A stretch of DNA of 64,000 nucleotides from Hyaloperonospora brassicae. Its lineage: Eukaryota > Oomycota > Peronosporomycetes > Peronosporales > Peronosporaceae. Location: assembly GCA_947650285.1 (NCBI GenBank), contig CANTFL010001479.1, forward strand, positions 1-64,000, given 5' to 3'. The notes beneath the pieces are model-generated. The model worked only from the letters and a program-made list of their open reading frames with translations. It had not been told where the DNA came from and did no database searches. The translations under genes were made by a program, and so were the position numbers. This document shows positions 33,301-47,312 of this stretch, in pieces (position 1 is the stretch's first letter; the number at the start of each line of letters is the position of its first letter).

Positions 33301-34827
33301 AAGTATCGGATCCTTTATGAGGCACATGATACTGCGTTGAGTGGTCATCTCGGTCGTGAGAAGACATATGGCTCAGCTATCCAATGCTATTGGTGGCCCA
33401 AACTATACAAATGGGTGAACACATATGTTCGTACGTGCGAAATGTGTCAACGGATGCAACCCTCAGCGCTTGCGGCCGCGCTGCTGGCTAGTTTGCCTAA
33501 ACCCAAAGGGTGTAGGGAGTCCATCAGTATGGGCTTCCTGTTCGGATTACACTATAATTCGTATGTTTATACGGGTATTGTGGTCTTTGTTAACCGTTTG
33601 AGCAAGATGGCTCACTTGGCGGCTGTGCCAGATACCGTTGATGGTGAAGGTACAGCTACGCTGTTTATCGATCGGTTGTTCCGACAATACGGTTTGCCTG
33701 TGGCAATTGTCTCCGATAGAGATCCTCGCTTCACTGGGAAGTTTTAAGGGTCTATCTTCAAGGTGCTCGGCACACGTTTGGACATGTCCACAGCGGATCA
33801 TCCGCAGACAGATGGTCAAACCGAGCGATTGAAACGCGTCATCGGTGACAAGTTACGCAGTATTTGCGCTAATACACTAAAACGTTGGAGTTCGATGCTT
33901 CCTGTTGTTGGGTTCGCGTTAAATAACGCTGTTCACGCCTCTACAGGATTTACTCCGTTCTACGGGAACGGTCTCACACACCCTCGCGTTCCGTTGACGC
34001 TACCACTGCGGGGTTCAGGGCTTGGTGGGGGAGAGATGGCCGATCGGCTTGCTGATAACAGATCTGCTACTGTTCATAAACAGGTAAACGAGTTTCTTGC
34101 AACGCGCTTGAATGTGTTACGACACGTACGTGATGCACTGGTTGATAGCCAAGACAAGCAGAAGGTTCAAGCTGATGCTAAAGGAAGAGGATGTATTAAA
34201 CGTTATGAGTTCGGAGACCAAGTTCTACTCAATGCTAAAAACCTACCTACAAATGTAGTGTCTGCCATCTTCAAGACAAAGTTGAGTCCGCGCTTCATTG
34301 GGCCATTCACGGTCATTGCTAAGAAGGGATTGGCGTATACACTCAACCTCCCGCGCAAACTGCGCACGCACCCAGTGTTCTGCGTCGGCTTACTTACGCC
34401 GTATCGGGATCCGTCTCATGTGAACTTGGAGGCGCTTGCGCCGGGTAATAGGGCCTTGCGTTCGGCTGTTGCATCCGAACTAGGAGGTCAAGCCGACCAT
34501 CTACACGGGCTAAGGCCAACTCCAATGTTTGAACACGGGCTTGCATCGCGTCGAGCGCACTCTGGGTCTTACCCAATGTCTCTTGGAGACCACTCAGCTC
34601 ACGGAGCACCTTCTCATGCTCCTCCTTCGGTACCCCGACTACCACCGACTCTGCTCGATAAGCAAGGGAACTACCAGTTCCATATGGAGCGACTCCTTTA
34701 GCGACTTCGTCGTCGTGGCCAATACCAGTATCTGGTAAAGTGGCGAGGGTACCCGGAGTCGGAGAACTCGTGGGAGTATGAGATACCCCTTCGGCAGGAC
34801 TGCCCTTACGCCGTAAAGGTTTTTTAA
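30330..34827 (+). pseudogene. pol: Family 1 pol, copy P: PR-RT-RNase H-IN-chromodomain, many in-frame stops
   Basis: Nearly the whole polyprotein lies in one frame. It is cut by stops ending at 31245, 31812, 32130, 32838, 33138, 33747 and 34701, with one frameshift pair in RNase H (about 32625-32850). Protease: LIDSGAS (30430-30460) and YDIILGMAWL. RT: LDLVDGYYQLL and intact YIDDIF (32228-32250). RNase H ends KKNAFADALSRRP. Integrase: GHLGREKTYG...CEMCQR; the first catalytic Asp is changed (SMGFLFG), the second (SDRDPRF) and the Glu (DGQTERLKR) remain. The GPY/F module is IGPFTVI...LRTHPVF (34285-34402). After a TAG the chromodomain reads YLVKWRGYPESENSWE and ends at TAA 34825-34827. Confidence 0.9.
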
Positions 34828-35736
34828 CATCGTGGCCTGGGTCGCCTTGCGAGCGAGAATACTTCTTACCAATAGTGGTGGGAGGTGGCGTGTTGCTCCG
34901 CACATCAGGGTCGAGACCCGTGGCTACCATTGTAGCCGGAGCATAACGCGTACGTGTACGCAACTGGCCTCTGGCCTTGAGCTTGGCATAATCGAACCGC
35001 TGCTTCCGTTCCAGACGAACGTCAGCCACATCGGCGCTGTCCCGCAGCGTTGGCACACTGCTAAGACGCCGCTTGCGGTACACCCAACGGATGAACTCAT
35101 TGTCTTCCTCCTCGGGCAGCTCGCCAGCGAACAACAAGATGGGCACGCCCTTTATCGGTCGAACCAAACACCACGAGAAATAATCTCAAGGTGTGCAAGG
35201 TACTGACCTTGCGTGGTATAGGCTGGTTCGAGATACCTCTCATTTAGAGCCTTGCGAAAGGCGATATCTTCTGGCGACGTAGCCTCGGGGCCAATGGCCC
35301 ATGTTGAAAGGCTACGGCCTTCCGTTTGACGGAGGCGTTGCTCCACGTCTGGTGTTGAGAACACGTAACCACTCCGGTTTCGAATAACCGCCTGGGTATG
35401 AGTGCGACGTAGAGCACGCTCCTCACTCTGACGGATCAGCTCCTGTTGCTCGTCGAGCGGGTTCGTGATGGTGTTCTCACCTGCATCTGTTGTATGATGC
35501 TTCGCCACTGGCGCGGTGGTATCACCACGTTCAACGAACGGATTCGGTGCTGTTAGAGGACGAGCCCCAGGTACAGCGTAGTGGGATGGATATCCCGTCA
35601 TCTCCATGGACACTGGTATCCCTACCATAGTCCACATCCTCGTCGAAGTCGAGGTAAGATGAAAGTGTCCAAGACTCGTTGGGTGGCAATGCCATGGTGT
35701 TTCGTGATCAGCAACTGCGAGGTAAAGCACAAACAC
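34394..35736 (-). pseudogene. Family 1 antisense ORF (two pieces)
   Basis: Two long minus-strand frames, 35736-35152 and 35167-34394, overlap at one frame change and together give about 440 codons. The first has QEEL-type charged helices (DEQQELIRQSEERALRRTH) and FRKALNERYLEPAY. The second starts with GVPILLFAGELPEEEDNEF and RWVYRKRRL, has a Pro/Ser/Thr-rich middle, and ends in a heptad-like coiled coil (residues 180-233, EHEKVLRELSGLQETLG...LELALARVDGRLDLL). Bases 34828-35736 lie beyond pol, so this is not merely a pol shadow; 34394-34827 is antisense to the chromodomain region. It starts about 66 bp from the 3' LTR. Function unknown. Confidence 0.6.
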
Positions 35737-36271: not shown

Positions 36272-38179
36272 ACGGCGGTGTACTGCATGAACTTCATAAC
36301 GATGTGGTGCACTTCGCTGTAAAGAGCTGGACCAATGAAGTACGCTCTGACTGTAAGGATCGACACAGCTATCGACTGGATAGTTGCTGGCGATGAAAAG
36401 AAGATGCCGACGCCCACGAGCGACGAGAGCATCATCATGACACCGAATACAGCGCCCAGGAAATAGTACGTGAGCTTCATGTGCTTCGGGTTGTTGCCTA
36501 GCCCGATAATGATGAGCATCAGCAGACCGAATAGGTACGCGAAGTTGTACATGTACACGGCACAGTCCAGTACAGTTTGCGAGTAGCCAGAAGTGTCGAC
36601 AAACTCGAGACTGTTTTGCTGAAAGCCCTGGAACACGATGAAGAATAACGCCAGGTACAGATTCGCTGGCAGGAAGAAGCCGAACACTGTGTATAGTAGA
36701 TGATATAGATACAACACCAGGAACGCCATCTTCCTCGGGAACGAATGTGAGCCCTCCAGGTAGATACGACCCCAATTCCGAATACAGAAGAGCGTGGCGA
36801 AGAACGCGCCATTGAGCCAGCGCTTTCGCTGCGAGATCAGACCGACAAGATTGTGCGGGACGTCTGTACGAGTGATCGAGTCCATGACGTAGTGCATCGT
36901 CCAGCTGCAGTCTTTCCGTGCCACAACTTCAAACGACAACATCCTGTCTTCAGCGAGGTACATGTTGCCGAGAAAAGGTCCCAGAACATCCAAATCAACG
37001 TTGAGCGTCTGAAAGTACGCATCCAGTGGAGCTCCTCGAATAGCTTCGTGGCGATAAGCAGAGAACGCTCCTGGTAACACACTAATGAAGCCAAAACAAC
37101 TCTCCAGCGACTTGTCCAGGATATTCGAGATCTTGTACTCGAAATGCTGCGCTGAAACGACCCAATTGCTCAGATTTTCGAACGCTTCGTCCACCGTCAG
37201 ATGTCCACAAGCTCCACCAATCTGTTGATTGCGCTCCATCGCAAAGAGCACGTGATAGAGCGCAGACTTCGTCAACATCGTGCCAACGTCCATCACAGCC
37301 GTATACTCCGGCTGCACCTGCTCGGCGAGCGCGTCAAAGTACCACCGGTGCGAGTCCAGTTTGCTCGACTTGTGCTCCTTGAGAGCGAACACCGTCTGAA
37401 TAGGCAAGAGACGCTTGCCATCCACCGAGATCTGCAGCGTGTGCTCGAACAAATGACATTGCGTGTCAATGCCGGCGCTATTGATGGTCAAGAGGCCTTT
37501 ATCGTACAAGCCGGTAGACTCCAAGTGCTCGAGCATCTTGTCATTGACCTTCTCGCGGCCGTCAGCGACGATACAGATGAGCACGTTCTGCCACACATTG
37601 TCGCCCGCGAACGGCCCCATTAGTGCGTAAGGATTGTTCTTGCGCTGACTGCGGCTCCGTCAGCTGCTGTTCTTTCAAATAGGCCAAATTGTTCGCGAGT
37701 TTCGTCAGCGTCGCTTTCAGCTGCTCTGGCTCTTCGTTGTACATGGTGATGCACACCATCAGACGCGGCCGTCGTCCCGTCTCTACACATCTGAACCGGT
37801 ACCCGAAGTTGGAAAAGTCCAGTGGGTGCGGACAAAACACGGGCGTGTACCACAGCCGACGCGCCTCTTCTTCGTCCAAGCTCGGGCCCACCCAGTCTTC
37901 GTCCCAATTGCGCACGAGGGTCCCGACATTGTGCACGCCCGAGCGCGGGTGATTCTCCTGCACGCGCTCTTCGACCCAATCACGGAGCAGCGCGTTCCGG
38001 TTCGACGTCTCAACGACTTCGCTTGCCAATGAGGTGTGGATTTCTGCGTGCATTCGGCGCTCCGTTACATTCGCCATGGCGTACCCGAAATCAAGGTGAT
38101 GAAACCCTTGACGGAGAAATGCGAAATGAGAGCACTTACGTTTTGCGCTAGCAAATCTTGTGCTCTCCAAAGCCTGCAT
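36272..38179 (-). pseudogene. CHS: Chitin synthase, copy 1: 3'-truncated by an LTR and frameshifted
   Basis: This is a family 2 glycosyltransferase that makes chitin from UDP-GlcNAc at the plasma membrane. The first piece (38179-about 37650) has HAEIHTSLASEVVETSNRN, WDEDWVG and VCITMYNEEPEQLKATLTKLA. A one-base frame change near 37640-37665 leads to NNPYALMGPFAGDN and the second piece, with VADGREKVN, VMDVGT, PGAFSAYR, AEDRML and the catalytic QRKRWLNG (usually Q(Q/R)RRW). At least four membrane spans follow. The coding sequence ends abruptly at KFMQYTAV, where the LTR starts at 36271, so the last spans and tail are missing. The start is uncertain: ATG at 38179 or the later MANVTERR. The remainder is not found on the other side of the element. 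Confidence 0.93.
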
Positions 38180-38510
38180 AATTGTTTACGACTGTAAACT
38201 CGCTCCGAATGTAGCCTACGATTATTACATCGTCCAGCTGTGCGCTCTAATTGTAGCCCACACCAGTGTAATGAAAATGGTCTTTCTTATTGTAGCCCAC
38301 AACCATTACTATTAGTCTAATCTTGATACGTTAACGTTACTCACAGCCGTCTCTGATTAACAACTTGCATTGTTGACGTTGTCGCACGAGACAACTTCGC
38401 GAAAGCTCAACTAGACTCACCAGAAACTTGCAAATCTTGGCCCTAAACATACTCCAAAAATTGTGGAAATAGCACGACGGTAACCGGCTTGCTCATCTGG
38501 TCAAAATTCT
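38180..38510 (-). promoter_or_regulatory. Chitin synthase upstream region, copy 1
   Basis: These 331 bases match 46866-47195 upstream of the second chitin synthase copy, with few differences. They contain repeated TGTAGCC(C/T)A words (38211-38293), which could be regulatory, though I know of no established role. At the outer end the minus strand reads QMSKPVTVVLFP, the tail of another open frame seen more fully at 47312-47103. The family 2 LTR starts at 38511. Confidence 0.6.
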
Positions 38511-38901
38511 TGTAACGGTGCAGCCCGTTACATGGAATTGTCACTTTAAAGAAAGTGACAATAAAGAATATGAAGTTGAATATTCTTTGAACAATATCAT
38601 TAAAGTGGTGATATTGATGGGTTGACAAAAGAGTCTGTTCATTGGTTGATATCTTGATGATGTCAACCCACCAATCGCCGCAAGACGCGCGCAATGAGTG
38701 GTGACGAGACGTCACCATACATTCAGTTATATTAGCATAATTAAGTTAAGTCAAACAGAGAGACAGTAGTTAAAAGACTTAATTATATTAATACAACAGT
38801 TCTGCTTTTACCCTACCTACGCTTCCTCGCCTGCCTTGTGTACGTCTGTCGGGGCACCGATACCCTTGCGTTAAGTTCACGCAAGGGTATACCCCGTTAC
38901 A
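38511..38901 (+). repeat. 5' LTR of family 2
   Basis: The 391 bp repeat begins TGTAACGGTGCAGCCCGTTACA, or in short an 8-base arm, a 6-base loop and its reverse complement, and ends ACCCCGTTACA. It shares internal blocks with the solo LTRs at 11205 and 49202 (GTTGATATC...CAACCCACCAATCGC). Near 38863-38890 a perfect stem, ACCCTTGCGT...ACGCAAGGGT, precedes the LTR end. Confidence 0.93.
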
Positions 38902-38945
38902 CCTGGTAGCACTTTGTAGTCCTTCCAAGGACCACAACATTTAAC

Positions 38946-40098
38946 ATGAACATGTTGGATGATGAAGAGACCTTTCACGCCACACGTGAAGTGTTTACCC
39001 ATTTGAGTGACATCGAATGGAGTGCGGTAGAACGAATTAGTTCTACCGTAGGCGAGTTCGCCATTAGCGCCATGTTGGAGTCTCTAGACAGAGACCAAGA
39101 ACATGCCGCTATAGCCAAGTTCATCCAAAGTAAACTTGTCGCCGAAAGGGAGAAAGTAGCCTTGCTTCACCAGCAAGGCTCTCAACAGGCCGAGCAGTTG
39201 AGAGAACTCGGTGCTCAACAGACAGAGCTGTTGATACAGCAGCAATTCCATGCTTCTGTGGGCGGGACGGCACATGCGCGTCGTCCCGAGGTCATGAAGT
39301 TGACATCTCCAAGTACAGTGGAGTCCCGGAGGACTCCCTGTTACTATGATTTGTCGAACTCGACAGAGCCTTAAGGGCTCGTCGCGTCGAAGATGAGCAA
39401 ATGAAACTCACATTTGCTCAGACCCACTTGGCAGGGCGTGCCAAAACTTTGACCCTGGGGCTCGAGAGTAGCGACCCACATGTGTTAAGGTCGCTAGATG
39501 CTTCAAGTCCCAGCTCAGACAAACGTTTGAGCCGCCACGGGCTGAGTTCAGGGCTCGTTCCGAGCTCCTGAAACTCAAGCAGGGTAAGCGTGATGTGCAC
39601 GCTTACGCTCAACATATACGACGCCTCGCGAGTATTATAACTGCTACCCCAGTCCATGTATACACGTTGATTACGGTGTTCATGCAAGGGCTCGCAGAAG
39701 GGCCCGTCAGGAGCCACCTGTTCCGCCTTGAGCCGAATACGCTGGCAGAAGCGATATCAGCCGCGGAACAGGAAGACTTCAGCATGAGACAGGCTCATGC
39801 TAGATCAAACTCTTGTCGTCCACCGAGACGACAAGAGATCGGAGGTCCAGAACCAATGGACCTCTACTATGTTGAGAGCGAGAGACCTCGCTCTTCAAAC
39901 AACAAGCGATTGCAGAAGTGCAATCGCTGTCAGAAGTCAGGGCACTTCGCACATGAGTGTAGTGCCCCACGCCCAGTACCAAGCAGTTCTGAGCAAAATG
40001 GACGACCATTTGCTAAGAAGGGAAATTGGCGTGGGTCCAGCGCTGTTGCGAAACCGCAAAAGCGAGACGGACCATCAAAAAATGGACGGGGTCAATAG
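38946..40098 (+). pseudogene. gag: Family 2 gag
   Basis: Gag starts MNMLDDEETFH at 38946. It has a Gln-rich helical stretch (LLHQQGSQQAEQLRELG) and then breaks at TAA 39372-39374, with the capsid continuing in other frames as RALRARRVEDEQMKLTFAQTHLAGRAKTL. The last piece (39595-40098) has VFMQGLAEGPVRSHLFRLE, QEDFSMRQAHA and the zinc knuckle CNRCQKSGHFAHEC, an exact CX2CX4HX4C. The start codon lies 45 bases after the LTR. Confidence 0.88.
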
Positions 40099-42982: not shown

Positions 42983-44177
42983 TTGCTGTACTATACAGCT
43001 GTTGCCGACGACACGCCTCGTGTCGTCGTACCCGCTCATCATGATTTGCGATCACGCATCATGTATGAGTGTCACGATGCCCCAACAGGCGGCCATCGTG
43101 GTAGAGAAAAGACTTACCTCACGGTAAGCCGCGACTTTTACTGGCCCCGCCAGTATCAGTTTGTCCGCAAATACATACGTGCTTGCGAGGTTTGTCAACG
43201 GGTGAAGCCTAGTCCTTCATCCCGTGCGCCATTGCAGCCTCTACCAGTCCCGGCAGAGTGCTGGCAGTCCGTTTCAATGGACTTCGTCTTCGGTTTTCCC
43301 GAAGACGATCACAAGAATAATGGTATTCTTGTGTTTGTTGACAGATTCAGCAAGATGGTCCATCTTGCTGCTGTCCCTGAGTCAATCAAGGCTCAAGGTT
43401 GTGCTAGTGTCTTTCTTGACACGATCTTCCGACTCCACGGGTTGCCCCGTGAACTCGTATCCGACCGTGACCCTCGTTTCACGGCGGAATTTTGGCAAAC
43501 CGTGTTCCGTTCTCTCGGAACACGATTGAAGATGTCTACCTCTGACCATCCGGAAATAGATGGTCAGACGGAACGTGCAAACCGTGTCCTCGAAGAGATC
43601 CTTCGAGGATATGTCCACTCGTTTTCGAGTTGGAGCGAATTCCTTCCAATGTTGGAATTCGCCATCAATACTTCGGTGCATGCTTCAACACAGCACACAC
43701 CGTTATACGTAAACGGTTTACGCATCCACGTGTGCCCGCCATTCTAGAGTGTGACTCTTGTATAAGGGGGGAGAGACTAGCTCGAGCAAAAACCGTTCTG
43801 GCTCTTGCTCATCACGTGTCGACGCTAACGTCGTCACGTATGATGCCGATATCGATCAAGTCGACATCGATGAAGAACATCACCTCAATAATAGCGGCAA
43901 CGCTATTATTGACTCGGATGGCGATGACGATGCTGGTATATTCCATATCGTCAACGATCATTCCAGCAAGGAAAATGACAACCTCGCTGAAGAAGAGAAC
44001 CATCTCTTAGCAGTGCGCACGAAGCGCACTAAAAGACAAAACAAAGAGTCAGCTGAGAACTTCCTGCTGACTATAGAAGCGGTAGTCCGTTTCGTTCAGG
44101 ACTCCATCGCAAATGCGGTGGACCGTCAGAAACGGAACGCAGTCAAGAATGGAAGAGCAAATGTTCCTTCAATATAA
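42983..44177 (+). pseudogene. pol: Family 2 integrase with acidic extension
   Basis: Integrase (42983-43747) keeps all hallmarks: HDAPTGGHRGREKTYL...CEVCQRVKP (HHCC), SVSMDFVFGF, VSDRDPRFT and IDGQTERANRVLEE (D,D,E). A TAG near 43747 and a frame change lead to an acidic, Asp-rich stretch (43758-44177: DADIDQVDIDEEHH, DSDGDDDAGIF) ending LLAVRTKRTKRQN and FVQDSIANAVDRQKRN. This extension lies between the core and the GPY/F module and is longer than in family 1. Confidence 0.88.
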
Positions 44178-44250: not shown

Positions 44251-45972
44251 CTACTGCCGAAGTACGTTGGGCCATTTCGAGTGTTGCATCGCAAGGGCAA
44301 TGCATACACACTCGAATTGCCACGTAAGATGCGCACGCATCCTACGTGTTACGTGGGGAGGCTCAGGCCGTACTGTCGGTACGAGCCTTCTTTTCCCGAT
44401 GAAGATAGCCCCACGTTCAAGAACATTCATCAAGCCCTTGCATTCGCGGTCCAGACGATCCGTCTGGTCGCGCAGATATGTTTTCTCGGAACTTAACCGA
44501 GATATCTCCCCGCGAGCTGTCGCCAGCTCGCTGAATAATGAGCCGAAATCCCGCTCGACCTGAAGCTGCGCTGTGGCAGAATCGGCGCGATCCCTCGCCC
44601 GATCAGCCTCGTGATCCTTGCGGTTCTTCCGCACGTTATCAGTCAAAGCGTAGCGCCGGTCGCGCTCGTGCTTCAAGTCATCGCGCAATTCATCGATTTC
44701 TCGATCCATCTCGTAAGGGTCGAGATGGTGCACCGAATCATCTGGAGGAGGTCTTTCCTCCTCCACCACATCCTTTGGTGGATTCTCACGGTGGTCAACG
44801 CTTTCTAGTGTAGCGTATCTTGAACCACCGTGACGATTCAGGATCAAGGACGAGCTACCTCGTCCAGTGGCGGGGGTATCCACCCTCTTGGAACAGCTGG
44901 GAGCCCCGCTCTCACCTGTTGATGGATGTTGAAGGTCTCGTCCGCCAGTATGACGAGACCCATCCGATGAGTCCTGTGGCCCATCGGTAAACACGCGCTT
45001 TTGGCGCGTGTAGACGGATTGCAAATTTGCAATCGCGTCACGCATCTTGTCCGAGATGTGTGCCGTTCCCCAGGGCGAACTTAGGGAATACACATCCCTA
45101 TGTGCACGCTGCGTGTTGTCAACACAACTCGCACAAGGGTCTCCCCATATGAGGCAAAGAATGCCTGCCTCACTCGACAAACAGTGCAACCGGTACCTGG
45201 CACCGATTGGCGTTCGCTTTTCGAACCTGAGGCGTGTCGCCTCAAGTTTCTTGAGCCATCCTTCTCGTCCAAAGTTCTTTACGTTTTGGACGAACGCGTT
45301 CCACGCAGCCAAAAGCGAGGCTTTGTCACGCTTTTGGTTGCTGTTGTACCATCGATGTCTAAGGAAGACATCAAGATAAAAGTCTTCTTCAGCGCGAAAG
45401 TTGGTAGCGCTGGGATTCAAGCCGTGAAGCTCAGTCGCATCGAATAAAGGTATTCGATGGTGTTGGCTTGTCTCGTGAGACAAGCTATTGATGAGACGCT
45501 CGGGCAAACGCCACGGCTTCAGCTCATCACGCTTCACAGTGGTACCTCTGTCGGTACCACGGCTCCCAGAATGACGACGGCTCACGCCATCGTCATCACG
45601 CTCGTGCGAAGAAGCAGGAGTCGGCGGTGGTAAGGAGTAATATTCCTCACCACCCTGATCTCCTTCATCATCACTGCCAAACAGACTGTGATGCAAATCA
45701 CGAGTCCGTTCGTTTGGCAGTGGTCTTAGCGAATACTGAGGCGTCGCCGGTGATCGAGACGCCTCTGGCGCATTGCCCGAGTCAGACACGTCCGACTCGC
45801 TAGAGTAGATGACCTCAACGTCGGGGTCATCATGCACACGCGGTGAGATACCGCGTGCACCTGCAGCACCTCTTGCTGCAGGCAGAGAAGGAGCAGCAGA
45901 CGACGAATGGTCTGCCGCAGAGGCTGGCACAGCAGCGGGCTGTGCGGGTCTTGAGTCACCCCGCATAGACAT
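44251..45972 (-). CDS. Family 2 antisense ORF, intact, 573 codons
   Basis: This is the longest open frame in the window, on the strand opposite gag-pol, starting 117 bp inside the 3' LTR. Residues 1-145 are Ala/Pro/Ser-rich and then acidic (DDPDVEVIYSSESDVSDS). Residues 185-260 look like a folded helical domain (EEDFYLDVFLRHRWYN, LLAAWNAFVQNVKNFGREGW). Residues 420-521 form a long, highly charged coiled coil (EIDELRDDLKHERDRR, LSSEKTYLRDQTDRLDRE). Residues 327-403 lie opposite the sense chromodomain, and 521-573 opposite the GPY/F module. Residues 1-327 lie in DNA beyond pol. No known family is recognised. It could be an accessory regulator, or an unusually open shadow frame. The ATG choice is the first Met of the frame. 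Confidence 0.65.
   Translation of the reverse strand: MSMRGDSRPAQPAAVPASAADHSSSAAPSLPAARGAAGARGISPRVHDDPDVEVIYSSESDVSDSGNAPEASRSPATPQYSLRPLPNERTRDLHHSLFGSDDEGDQGGEEYYSLPPPTPASSHERDDDGVSRRHSGSRGTDRGTTVKRDELKPWRLPERLINSLSHETSQHHRIPLFDATELHGLNPSATNFRAEEDFYLDVFLRHRWYNSNQKRDKASLLAAWNAFVQNVKNFGREGWLKKLEATRLRFEKRTPIGARYRLHCLSSEAGILCLIWGDPCASCVDNTQRAHRDVYSLSSPWGTAHISDKMRDAIANLQSVYTRQKRVFTDGPQDSSDGSRHTGGRDLQHPSTGESGAPSCSKRVDTPATGRGSSSLILNRHGGSRYATLESVDHRENPPKDVVEEERPPPDDSVHHLDPYEMDREIDELRDDLKHERDRRYALTDNVRKNRKDHEADRARDRADSATAQLQVERDFGSLFSELATARGEISRLSSEKTYLRDQTDRLDRECKGLMNVLERGAIFIGKRRLVPTVRPEPPHVTRRMRAHLTWQFECVCIALAMQHSKWPNVLRQ
44254..44990 (+). pseudogene. pol: Family 2 GPY/F module and chromodomain
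   Basis: The plus strand reads GPFRVLHRKGNAYTLELPRKMRTH (44265-44340), then a frame change, a Pro-rich linker (PPPPHPLVDSHGGQRFLV), a TAG at 44811-44813 where Glu is usual, and RILNHRDDSGSRTSYLVQWRGYPPSWNSWEPR, with the chromodomain core at about 44855-44910. It ends at a TAA just before 44993. The whole segment is covered by the antisense ORF on the other strand, in which the TAG is harmless. Confidence 0.82.
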
Positions 45973-46088
45973 GTTAAATATGCGAGGTCAAGCGAAAAGT
46001 GAATGGAACGGACTCAACAAGTGCTCCCTGTCCCAATGGTGTCTAACGGGTGGCCGCCATATGTTTGATGATCACACGATGACTATTA

Positions 46089-46478
46089 GTTAAGGGGCAG
46101 CTCGTTACATGGAATTGTCACTTTAAAGAAAGTGACAATAAAGAATGTGAAGTTGAATATTCTTTGAACAATATCACCAAAGTGGTGATATTGATGGGTC
46201 GACCAAAGAGTCTGTTCATTGGTTGATATCTTGATGATGTCAACCCACCAATCGCCGCAAGACGCGCGCAATGAGTGGTGACGAGACGTCACCATACATT
46301 CAGTTATATTAGCATAATTAAGTTAAGTCAAACAGAGAGACAGTAGTTAAAAGACTTAATTATATTAATACAACAGTTCTGCTTTTACCCTACCTACGCT
46401 TCCTCGCCTGCCTTGTGTACGTCTGTCGGGGCACCGATACCCTTGCGTTAAGTTCACGCAAGGGTGTGCCCCGTTACA
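46089..46478 (+). repeat. 3' LTR of family 2
   Basis: It matches the 5' LTR at 38511-38901 apart from about ten substitutions and a decayed first dozen bases (AGTTAAGGGGCAGCTCG in place of the usual TGTAACGG start). It ends CCCCGTTACA at 46478 and is followed by CAACCGGTACCCG, chitin synthase coding sequence on the minus strand. Confidence 0.92.
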
Positions 46479-46865
46479 CAACCGGTACCCGAAGTTGGAA
46501 AAATCCATTGGGTGCGGACAAAACACGGGCGTGTACCACAGCCGACGCGCCTCTGCTTCGTCCAAGCTCGGGCCCACCCAGTCTTCGTCCCAATTGCGCA
46601 CAAGGGTCCCGACATTGTGCACGCCCGAGCGCGGGTGATTTTCCTGCACGCGCTCTTCGACCCAATCACGGAGCAGCGCGTTCCGGTTCGACGTCTCAAC
46701 GACTTCGCTTGCCAATGAGGTGTGGATTTCTGCGTGCATTCGGCGCTCCGTTACATTCGCCATGGCGTACCCGAAATCAAGGTGATGAAACCCTTGACGG
46801 AGAAATGCGAAATGAGAGCACTTACGTTTTGCGCTAGCAAATCTTGTGCTCTCCAAAGCCTGCAT
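46479..46865 (-). pseudogene. CHS: Chitin synthase, copy 2: 5' fragment only
   Basis: The minus strand encodes the N-terminal 127 or so residues of the same chitin synthase as at 38179. It runs from MQALESTRF through HAEIHTSLASEVVETSNRN, WDEDWVGPSLDE and HPMDFSNFGYR, where the family 2 LTR cuts in. It differs from copy 1 by very few residues (Glu to Ala in the EARR segment, Leu to Met in HP(L/M)DFSN). None of the catalytic domain is present. Upstream DNA matches copy 1 for another 330 bp. The same start ambiguity applies as in copy 1. Confidence 0.93.
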
Positions 46866-47102
46866 AATTGTTTACGACTGTAAACTCGCTCCGAATGTAG
46901 CCTACGATTATTACATCGTCCAGCTGTGCGCTCTAATTGTAGCCCACACCAGTGTAATGAAAATGGTCTTTCTTATTGTAGCCCACAACCATTACTATTA
47001 GTCTAATCTTGATACGTTAACGTTACTCACAGCCGTCTCTGATTAACAACTTGCATTGTTGACGTTGTTGCACGAGACACCTTCGTGAAAGCTCAACTCG
47101 AC

Positions 47103-47312
47103 TCACCAGAAACGTGCGGTCTTAGCCCTAAACATGCTGCAAAGATGCGGAAATAGCACGACGGTGACCGGCTTGCTCATCTGGTCAGCATTCATGTCCC
47201 GGTTTGGGCAGTGCTCACAAACCACTTGTCTCTCAGCAACCTTTTCAAGCACACAAAACTTTAGCAGAAAACAACGTGCTTTGTGTGGTACAAACCTCGT
47301 GATCTGGGCCAA
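47103..47312 (-). pseudogene. Unidentified host-like gene end upstream of chitin synthase
   Basis: The minus strand has an open piece with CVLEKVAERQVVCEHCPNRD and NADQMSKPVTVVLFPHLCSMF, then a stop at about 47101. It ends about 240 bp upstream of the chitin synthase copy 2 start, in the same direction. The last dozen residues recur, less preserved, upstream of copy 1 (38500-38460), so it belonged to the duplicated segment. The CX2C pair hints at a zinc site. I do not recognise the family. Confidence 0.35.

What the first reader, a model, noticed from the sequence alone, without database searches (positions are those of the whole stretch)
44251..45972. Intact 573-codon antisense gene candidate in a gypsy element whose sense genes are broken
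Seen: the minus strand is open for 573 codons between pol and the 3' LTR, while gag and pol on the plus strand carry many stops. About 327 codons lie beyond the end of pol, so the frame is not just a shadow of pol. The product has ordered composition: an acidic Ser/Pro N-terminus, a helical middle and a 100-residue coiled coil. Its start lies 117 bp from the 3' LTR. Inference: an accessory protein made from antisense transcription driven by the 3' LTR, in the way some retroviruses and plant LTR elements use antisense frames. I know of no described family for it.
Basis: partly seen in the sequence, partly recalled or inferred. Interest (0 to 1): 0.88.

Follow-up and report, generated by a model that had tools for sequence, protein, structure and literature searches.

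The report
Antisense third gene in oomycete retrotransposon
A jumping gene of a downy mildew carries a third, backwards-written protein gene overlapping the tail of its replication gene; evolution has preserved that protein about as strongly as the element's other proteins, so it is very probably a working part of the element, although its job is unknown.

Summary
The window is almost certainly Hyaloperonospora brassicae. The 573-codon minus-strand frame is one copy of a gene (here aORF1) found at the same place in 20 of 20 element copies picked by aORF1 score and 10 of 10 picked by reverse transcriptase alone (4 of those 10 intact). Beyond pol its dN/dS is 0.3-0.5 (omega free against 1: 2dlnL 36.8), like gag and pol. 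Relatives at 37-48% identity occur in named other downy mildews. Corrections: the intact protein is about 535 aa; in the window copy an indel replaced its conserved basic, NLS-like tail with about 40 residues of pol shadow. The gene overlaps pol by about 210 codons: its coiled coil faces an unconstrained pol linker, its hinge the constrained chromodomain. A second antisense gene, unlike it in sequence (aORF2), sits at the same spot in another Gypsy family of this window, with relatives as far as Phytophthora ramorum. Antisense genes between pol and the 3' LTR are known in plants (Grande, Retand) and a fungus (Boty); the protein families, the chromodomain overlap and the oomycete setting appear new. 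Best guess: a nuclear coiled-coil regulator of the element. No RNA evidence could be examined.

The parts
44251..45972 (-). aORF1: antisense open frame, 573 codons in this copy (intact copies about 535 aa)
45505..45972 (-). aORF1 residues 1-156: acidic, Ser/Pro-rich, predicted disordered; ML omega 0.55 for residues 1-149
44998..45504 (-). aORF1 residues 157-325: conserved helical domain, beyond pol; ML omega 0.40 for residues 150-324
45124..45186 (-). H263, C273, C280, C283: listed as invariant in alignment A1; zinc binding is inference
44719..44994 (-). aORF1 hinge, about residues 327-418, mostly predicted disordered; its first ~60 codons lie opposite pol's chromodomain and show no detectable constraint of their own (omega 0.90 for residues 328-395)
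44389..44718 (-). aORF1 residues 419-528: one long confident helix, probable coiled coil; omega 0.50 for residues 401-515
44251..44385 (-). frame-shifted C-terminal stretch of this copy (pol shadow) in place of the conserved basic tail
45996..46002 (-). INR-like TCACTTT (YCAYTYY of PMC3599244), 30 nt before the aORF1 ATG; weak evidence
44814..44990 (+). chromodomain end of pol, opposite the aORF1 hinge (in another frame than the pol part before it in this copy); placed by reading against L028
41370..42440 (+). pol fragment with reverse transcriptase and start of RNase H
42983..43747 (+). pol fragment with integrase
38946..40098 (+). gag region, broken in this copy (zinc knuckle in 39595-40098)
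38511..38902 (+). 5' LTR (approximate ends)
46089..46478 (+). 3' LTR (approximate ends); the two LTRs differ at 13 of 393 aligned sites
34394..35736 (-). aORF2: antisense gene of a second chromodomain Gypsy family, in two open pieces (broken frame) in this copy

Best explanation
SHOWN: 44251-45972(-) is a copy, damaged at its C-terminus, of a protein-coding antisense third gene of a chromodomain-bearing Ty3/Gypsy element of (by contig-length match) Hyaloperonospora brassicae. It is carried at the same place by independent insertions, is under purifying selection comparable to gag and pol, has diverged relatives in other downy mildews, and shares its last ~210 codons, tail to tail on the opposite strand, with pol's linker and chromodomain. 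INFERRED: it is transcribed antisense from a promoter just inside the 3' LTR (or in the LTR), and the ~535-aa protein enters the nucleus through its basic tail, oligomerises by its coiled coil, and uses its helical, possibly zinc-binding domain to act on the element's DNA, RNA or integration complex as a trans-acting regulator, much as retroviral and plant antisense accessory proteins are thought to do. Probability: selected antisense protein gene about 0.93; nuclear accessory role about 0.5; any specific step (transcriptional control, nuclear import, silencing suppression, integration targeting) 0.1-0.2 each.
For: Own-genome search: 76 scored matches, 32 of 76 without a stop over the aligned stretch (my count). 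The gene lies at the same place in 20 of 20 fetched copies, 17 of which align over both element ends; exact 5-bp flanking repeats in 11 of 20 (my count). RT-chosen sample: present in 10 of 10, fully open in 4 of 10. Residues 1-324: median dN/dS 0.33 over the 152 of 210 pairs with dS>0.05; on 20 distinct rows ML omega 0.47, 2dlnL 36.8; core 0.40, 25.2; coiled coil 0.50, 17.6 (omega-1 fits at three trial kappas). Same copies, pooled pN/pS: gag 0.37, pol 1-1100 0.39, RT 0.28. Six-frame control: the aORF frame has 2 stops in all 21 copies (both in L013) against means of 5.8-23.9 per copy in the other frames, and the lowest pN/pS, 0.33. Internal branches (51 N: 64 S) are more constrained than terminal ones (103.5: 70.5), Fisher P 0.011. 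Overlap: pol linker 1.18 opposite coiled coil 0.57; chromodomain 0.34 opposite hinge 0.71. Relatives in H. arabidopsidis, Peronospora matthiolae and P. destructor. Basic K[KR]x[KR] tail in 18 of 20 C-termini, H-C-C-C motif in 18 of 19 sequences tested.
Against: No RNA or protein evidence. The 20 main copies were picked from the aORF1 score list, and ten of them (L019-L028) among rows already shown without a stop, so their intactness is by choice. In the RT-chosen sample, itself drawn from copies at 98-100% RT identity to L028, only 4 of 10 are intact and pN/pS for residues 1-324 is 0.56 (0.43 without the two most decayed copies). The hinge opposite the chromodomain shows no selection of its own (omega 0.90, 2dlnL 0.1; 1.23 for L028-L031), and residues 1-149 are only loosely held between L028 and L031 (0.67). 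In the aORF2 family the division of constraint is seen in the two wider comparisons (chromodomain 0.31 and 0.34, linker 1.03 and 0.77) but not in L032-L034, which has few changes (1.60 and 0.22). The fold model is poor overall (pLDDT 56) and found no informative relative. The INR hint is weak (about 9% by shuffling; absent in L010 and the three aORF2 loci). NLS and zinc roles rest on recalled motif definitions.
Confidence: 0.85

Rival explanations
1. The frame is a by-product of the opposite strand (shadow of pol, or of composition), not a gene.
For: About 210 of its codons do lie opposite pol; the hinge opposite the chromodomain looks constrained only through pol (omega 0.90); the last ~40 codons of the window copy are shadow; long random frames are not rare at this composition.
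Against: 327 codons lie beyond pol. Over 307 gap-free codons of that part the three sense frames carry means of 8-10 stops per copy, while the aORF frame carries 2 stops in all 21 copies together and has the lowest pN/pS. Relatives at 37-51% identity keep the domain; the coiled coil is constrained where pol's linker is not.
Confidence: 0.03
2. The antisense RNA, not the protein, is the functional product (for example a source of small RNAs damping the element).
For: Sense and antisense small RNAs map along Gypsy elements of Phytophthora infestans (PMC3522703, passages seen); PMC7264820 raises this possibility for plants.
Against: An RNA role alone does not predict dN/dS of 0.3-0.5 or conserved residues at 37-51% protein identity. 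Both roles could coexist.
Confidence: 0.05
3. The protein is a structural or packaging component of the virus-like particle or of the cytoplasmic complex rather than a nuclear regulator.
For: Helical domain plus long coiled coil; constraint similar to gag's.
Against: No match to this element's gag and no gag or capsid model among the Pfam matches; basic tail in 18 of 20 C-termini.
Confidence: 0.2
4. A nested element or captured host gene that happens to lie inside this copy.
For: The coding strand is opposite to gag-pol; no relative recognised as a host gene was found, so the origin is unknown.
Against: Same position in 20 of 20 and 10 of 10 copies and opposite the pol tail in three divergent subfamily loci. 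As an ancient origin capture is not excluded; as an explanation of this copy it is.
Confidence: 0.03

Closest known systems
Antisense additional ORFs (aORF-3R) of plant Gypsy elements: Grande gene23, RIRE2, Retand, PvRetro13 (PMC7264820, parts 1-2 of 3 read; PMC11963269, passages and Discussion read)
   Same: Antisense to gag-pol at the 3' end of the internal region, in most copies, conserved to a degree like gag-pol. SMC and Mis12 matches are reported there; weak coiled-coil matches, Mis12 among them, are seen here. Grande's product is reported nuclear; here a basic NLS-like tail.
   Different: No TRP28/PF04195 match here. Here the gene overlaps pol by ~210 codons, chromodomain included, and starts ~0.12 kb from the 3' LTR; Retand's pol-to-LTR region is 2.9-6.6 kb. 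Host is an oomycete.
brtn antisense gene of Boty elements, Botrytis cinerea (Zhao et al. 2011; seen only as cited in PMC7264820 and in passages of PMC8365987)
   Same: Antisense gene in an LTR retrotransposon of a filamentous plant pathogen.
   Different: Sequence not compared here; fungal host.
HBZ / APH-2 antisense proteins of HTLV (nuclear role as told in PMC11963269 passages; bZIP nature of HBZ recalled)
   Same: Accessory protein coded antisense towards the 3' LTR, presumed nuclear.
   Different: No bZIP match here; a retrotransposon, not a retrovirus; LTR promoter activity untested.
Chronos Ty3/Gypsy elements of oomycetes (PMC5348765; abstract, outline, section 5 and passages read)
   Same: Peronosporales Gypsy element with a chromodomain at the end of pol.
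   Different: Chronos has two RNase H domains; only the Gypsy-type one was found here. The word antisense has 0 occurrences in that paper's main text.

Membership tests
aORF-3R class (antisense ORF between pol and 3' LTR) | open frame antisense to gag-pol at the 3' end of the internal region | tested here: met
   it overlaps the pol tail
aORF-3R class (antisense ORF between pol and 3' LTR) | present in most copies of the family | tested here: met
   10 of 10 copies chosen by RT, of 131 listed; intact in 4 of 10
aORF-3R class (antisense ORF between pol and 3' LTR) | conserved to a degree similar to gag-pol | tested here: met
aORF-3R class (antisense ORF between pol and 3' LTR) | antisense transcript, own promoter, nuclear product (Grande) | not testable with these tools
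   no RNA data; only INR-like and NLS-like motifs
Retand-type TRP28 protein | PF04195 domain | tested here: not met
   not among Pfam matches at E<=0.1 for 11 aORF1 sequences or 15 aORF2 sequences; sequence level only
HBZ-like antisense bZIP protein | bZIP domain | tested here: not met
   not among Pfam matches at E<=0.1 for 11 sequences; sequence level only
Chronos (oomycete Gypsy) | dual RNase H in pol | tested here: not met
   only RT_RNaseH-type matches at E<=0.01 in three overlapping pol pieces of one copy, L028
Chronos (oomycete Gypsy) | chromodomain at the end of pol | tested here: met
   PF00385, E 1.9e-13 in L028
Known fold of the aORF1 helical domain | structural match to a solved or viral protein | tested here: inconclusive

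The most novel reading that the evidence does not exclude
Chromodomain-bearing Gypsy elements of Peronosporales have at least twice fixed an antisense gene directly opposite the chromodomain tail of pol. The two proteins are unlike in sequence but alike in layout (acidic start, conserved domain beyond pol, hinge opposite the chromodomain, C-terminal coiled coil; modelled for aORF1 only). Together with the plant and fungal cases this would be a convergent third gene of LTR retrotransposons: a nuclear cofactor of chromodomain-guided integration or an anti-silencing factor, whose antisense overlap ties its expression to that of pol.
Probability: 0.3. Interest if true: 0.82.

Novelty: new variant of a known kind. 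Interest (0 to 1): 0.62.

Why it matters
Antisense genes at the 3' end of LTR retrotransposons are known from plants and a fungus, but their function is open. Here are two further protein families in oomycetes, in scores of copies (4 of 18 aORF1 elements tested have identical LTRs over the aligned sites, so are recent), with measurable selection and an antisense overlap in which the two strands seem to divide the constraint. This gives the open question a set of testable proteins, shows the arrangement in another eukaryotic lineage, and suggests that some uncharacterised or effector-candidate proteins in downy-mildew annotations are transposon genes.

Tried and rejected
Shadow of pol: rejected for residues 1-324, accepted for the last ~40 codons of this copy and, in effect, for the hinge opposite the chromodomain. 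Homology of aORF1 and aORF2: no support (hhalign probability 1.4%), with shallow profiles; very old common origin is not excluded. Derivation from gag: no support. Known domain: only weak, mostly coiled-coil matches. Solved structures by sequence: one match at E 0.67. Folds: nothing informative. Promoter: INR only, weak. Scripts that stopped with errors: reading the omega value; done; ancestral states by IQ-TREE; replaced by parsimony counts. Protein searches scored only the 8000 candidates sharing most words. Literature: antisense ORF + LTR retrotransposon + oomycete, 0 papers; searches listed no paper whose title or shown abstract start reports such a gene in oomycetes. Most listed papers were not opened, and only open-licence PMC papers are held.

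Full report
OBSERVATION. The frame 44251-45972(-) is real: 573 codons without a stop, in a Ty3/Gypsy element of about 7.97 kb with LTRs at roughly 38511-38902 and 46089-46478. In this copy gag has 2 in-frame stops and pol 11, plus frame switches. A database protein (P0050) is named as Hyaloperonospora brassicae and lies on a contig of 186,089 bases, the length of the window's contig C887; I take the window to be that downy mildew.

IT IS A FAMILY FEATURE. A search of the genome with the protein gave 76 scored matches, 32 of 76 with no stop over the aligned stretch (only best candidates are scored). Twenty copies fetched with flanks are the same element with the frame in the same place; 17 of 20 align over both ends and three (L009, L011, L020) lack or have a damaged 5' end. 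Exact 5-bp flanking repeats are seen in 11 of 20 (my count), so many are independent insertions. The frame is at least 530 aa long in 16 of 21 copies, window included, cut near 488 aa in three and broken in two. That count is biased: the copies came from the list ranked by this very frame, and L019-L028 were taken among rows already shown without a stop. I therefore took every 14th of 131 copies ranked by reverse transcriptase alone (all at 98-100% identity to L028), 10 in all, nine newly fetched and one already held (L019): the gene is present in 10 of 10 and fully open in 4 of 10 (L019).

SELECTION. For residues 1-324, beyond pol, the median pairwise dN/dS is 0.33 (the 152 of 210 pairs with dS above 0.05). 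A codon model on 20 distinct rows gives omega 0.47 and rejects omega 1 (2dlnL 36.8, with kappa tried at three values under omega 1); for the core 150-324 it is 0.40 (25.2) and for residues 1-149 0.55 (11.8). Gag and pol residues 1-1100 in the same copies have pooled pN/pS of 0.37 and 0.39, RT alone 0.28. Among six frames this one has the lowest ratio, 0.33. One sense frame shares its third positions and reads 0.39, but has 10 stops per copy; the other four read 0.99-1.55. Stops of the aORF frame itself were masked; one search shows two within residues 1-324 in all 21 copies, both in L013. Internal branches (N 51, S 64) are more constrained than terminal ones (N 103.5, S 70.5; Fisher P 0.011), as expected if working copies are selected and dead ones drift. 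In the RT-chosen sample pN/pS is 0.56, or 0.43 without the two most decayed copies.

RELATIVES. The protein database gave 11 relatives by single sequence and 48 by profile, among the 8000 candidates scored in each; named sources are H. brassicae, H. arabidopsidis, Peronospora matthiolae and P. destructor, the rest are unnamed ENA entries. Identity falls to 37% while the helical domain and residues H263, C273, C280 and C283 stay; the spaced H-C-C-C motif is in 18 of 19 sequences tested and 20 of 21 copies. In other subfamilies of this genome (L029-L031) the gene again lies opposite the pol tail, intact in L031 and with a broken start in L029 and L030. Between L028 and L031 the core has dN/dS 0.25, residues 1-149 0.67.

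ANATOMY. A model built on 11 sequences (mean pLDDT 56) shows a disordered start to residue 156, a helical domain at 157-325, a mostly disordered hinge, and one long confident helix at 419-528. Intact copies end at 535 aa with a basic tail; the pattern K[KR]x[KR] occurs in 18 of 20 C-termini that a script picked out (16 database proteins and 4 loci). In the window copy, L009 and L014 a frame-shifting indel near residue 532 replaces that tail with pol shadow. The pol frame breaks in the same region in these copies, so one indel probably hits both genes.

OVERLAP. In L028 pol ends with a chromodomain (PF00385), and the antisense gene overlaps pol by 629 nt, stop codons included. Constraint is divided: pol's linker is free (1.18) where it faces the coiled coil (0.57; omega 0.50, 2dlnL 17.6), and the chromodomain is constrained (0.34) where it faces the hinge (0.71; omega 0.90, not different from 1).

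A SECOND CASE. The window holds another antisense frame, 34394-35167 with 35152-35736(-), opposite the pol tail of a second chromodomain Gypsy, its frame broken here. The genome search scored 148 matches. Three intact loci encode 433 aa and overlap pol from residue 274; beyond pol dN/dS is 0.25 at dS 1.13 (L032-L033, and the same for L033-L034; L032-L034 has too few changes to tell). Pol's chromodomain and linker give 0.31-0.34 and 0.77-1.03 in the two wide comparisons, 1.60 and 0.22 in the narrow one. Its 77 relatives reach Peronospora effusa and Phytophthora ramorum (34% and 36% for the best two). The two proteins do not match each other, so antisense genes may have been gained twice at the same spot, unless they have diverged beyond recognition.

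HOW IT MAY WORK. Shown: a selected antisense protein gene. Inferred: antisense transcription from the ~117-bp spacer or the LTR. An oomycete initiator motif (YCAYTYY, PMC3599244, section 6 and passages read) lies 30 nt before the ATG (36 nt in L031) in 21 of 22 aORF1 loci, but a shuffle gives such a match in about 9% of cases, and the three aORF2 loci lack it. Also inferred: nuclear entry by the basic tail, oligomerisation by the long helix, and contact with nucleic acid or chromatin by the helical domain. I consider a nuclear regulatory role the likeliest, at about one half.

KNOWN KIND. PMC7264820 (parts 1-2 of 3 read) and PMC11963269 (passages and Discussion read) describe antisense genes between pol and the 3' LTR in Grande, RIRE2 and Retand; PMC7264820 adds PvRetro13 and the fungal Boty. 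Their function is given as unknown. This gene meets the structural features of that kind but has no TRP28 or bZIP match. The oomycete Chronos group (PMC5348765: abstract, outline, section 5 and passages read) shares the chromodomain but has a second RNase H not found here, and its main text does not use the word antisense. My searches listed no report of such genes in oomycetes by title or abstract start; subscription papers and preprints are not covered.

Noticed in passing
34394-35167 and 35152-35736 (-): A second antisense gene (aORF2), unlike the first in sequence, in another chromodomain Gypsy family, overlapping the end of pol; 148 scored matches in the genome and relatives to Phytophthora ramorum.
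   Followed up: partly
about 37794-38508 and 46480-47195: About 0.7 kb of the 5' part of a chitin synthase gene stands on both sides of the element, far longer than the usual 5-bp target repeat; 98% identity over the 300 bases reported, 86% over a 63-base piece at the far end. Origin unexplained.
   Followed up: no
pol residue about 1146 in L009-L028: The pol frame breaks at the same spot in 13 of 20 fetched copies, and 1339 codons is the pol frame length listed most often: a recurrent slippage site, a shared lesion or a programmed frameshift.
   Followed up: no
L031 against L028, aORF1 residues 401-515: The coiled-coil part is far more diverged (dN 0.60, dS 3.1) than the core beside it (dS 0.31), suggesting exchange of the 3' module between subfamilies.
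   Followed up: no
proteins P0031 and P0036: C-terminal pieces of this transposon gene are named RxLR effector candidates in the H. arabidopsidis proteome (P0031 56%, P0036 61% identity to the window protein); they look like transposon proteins instead.
   Followed up: no
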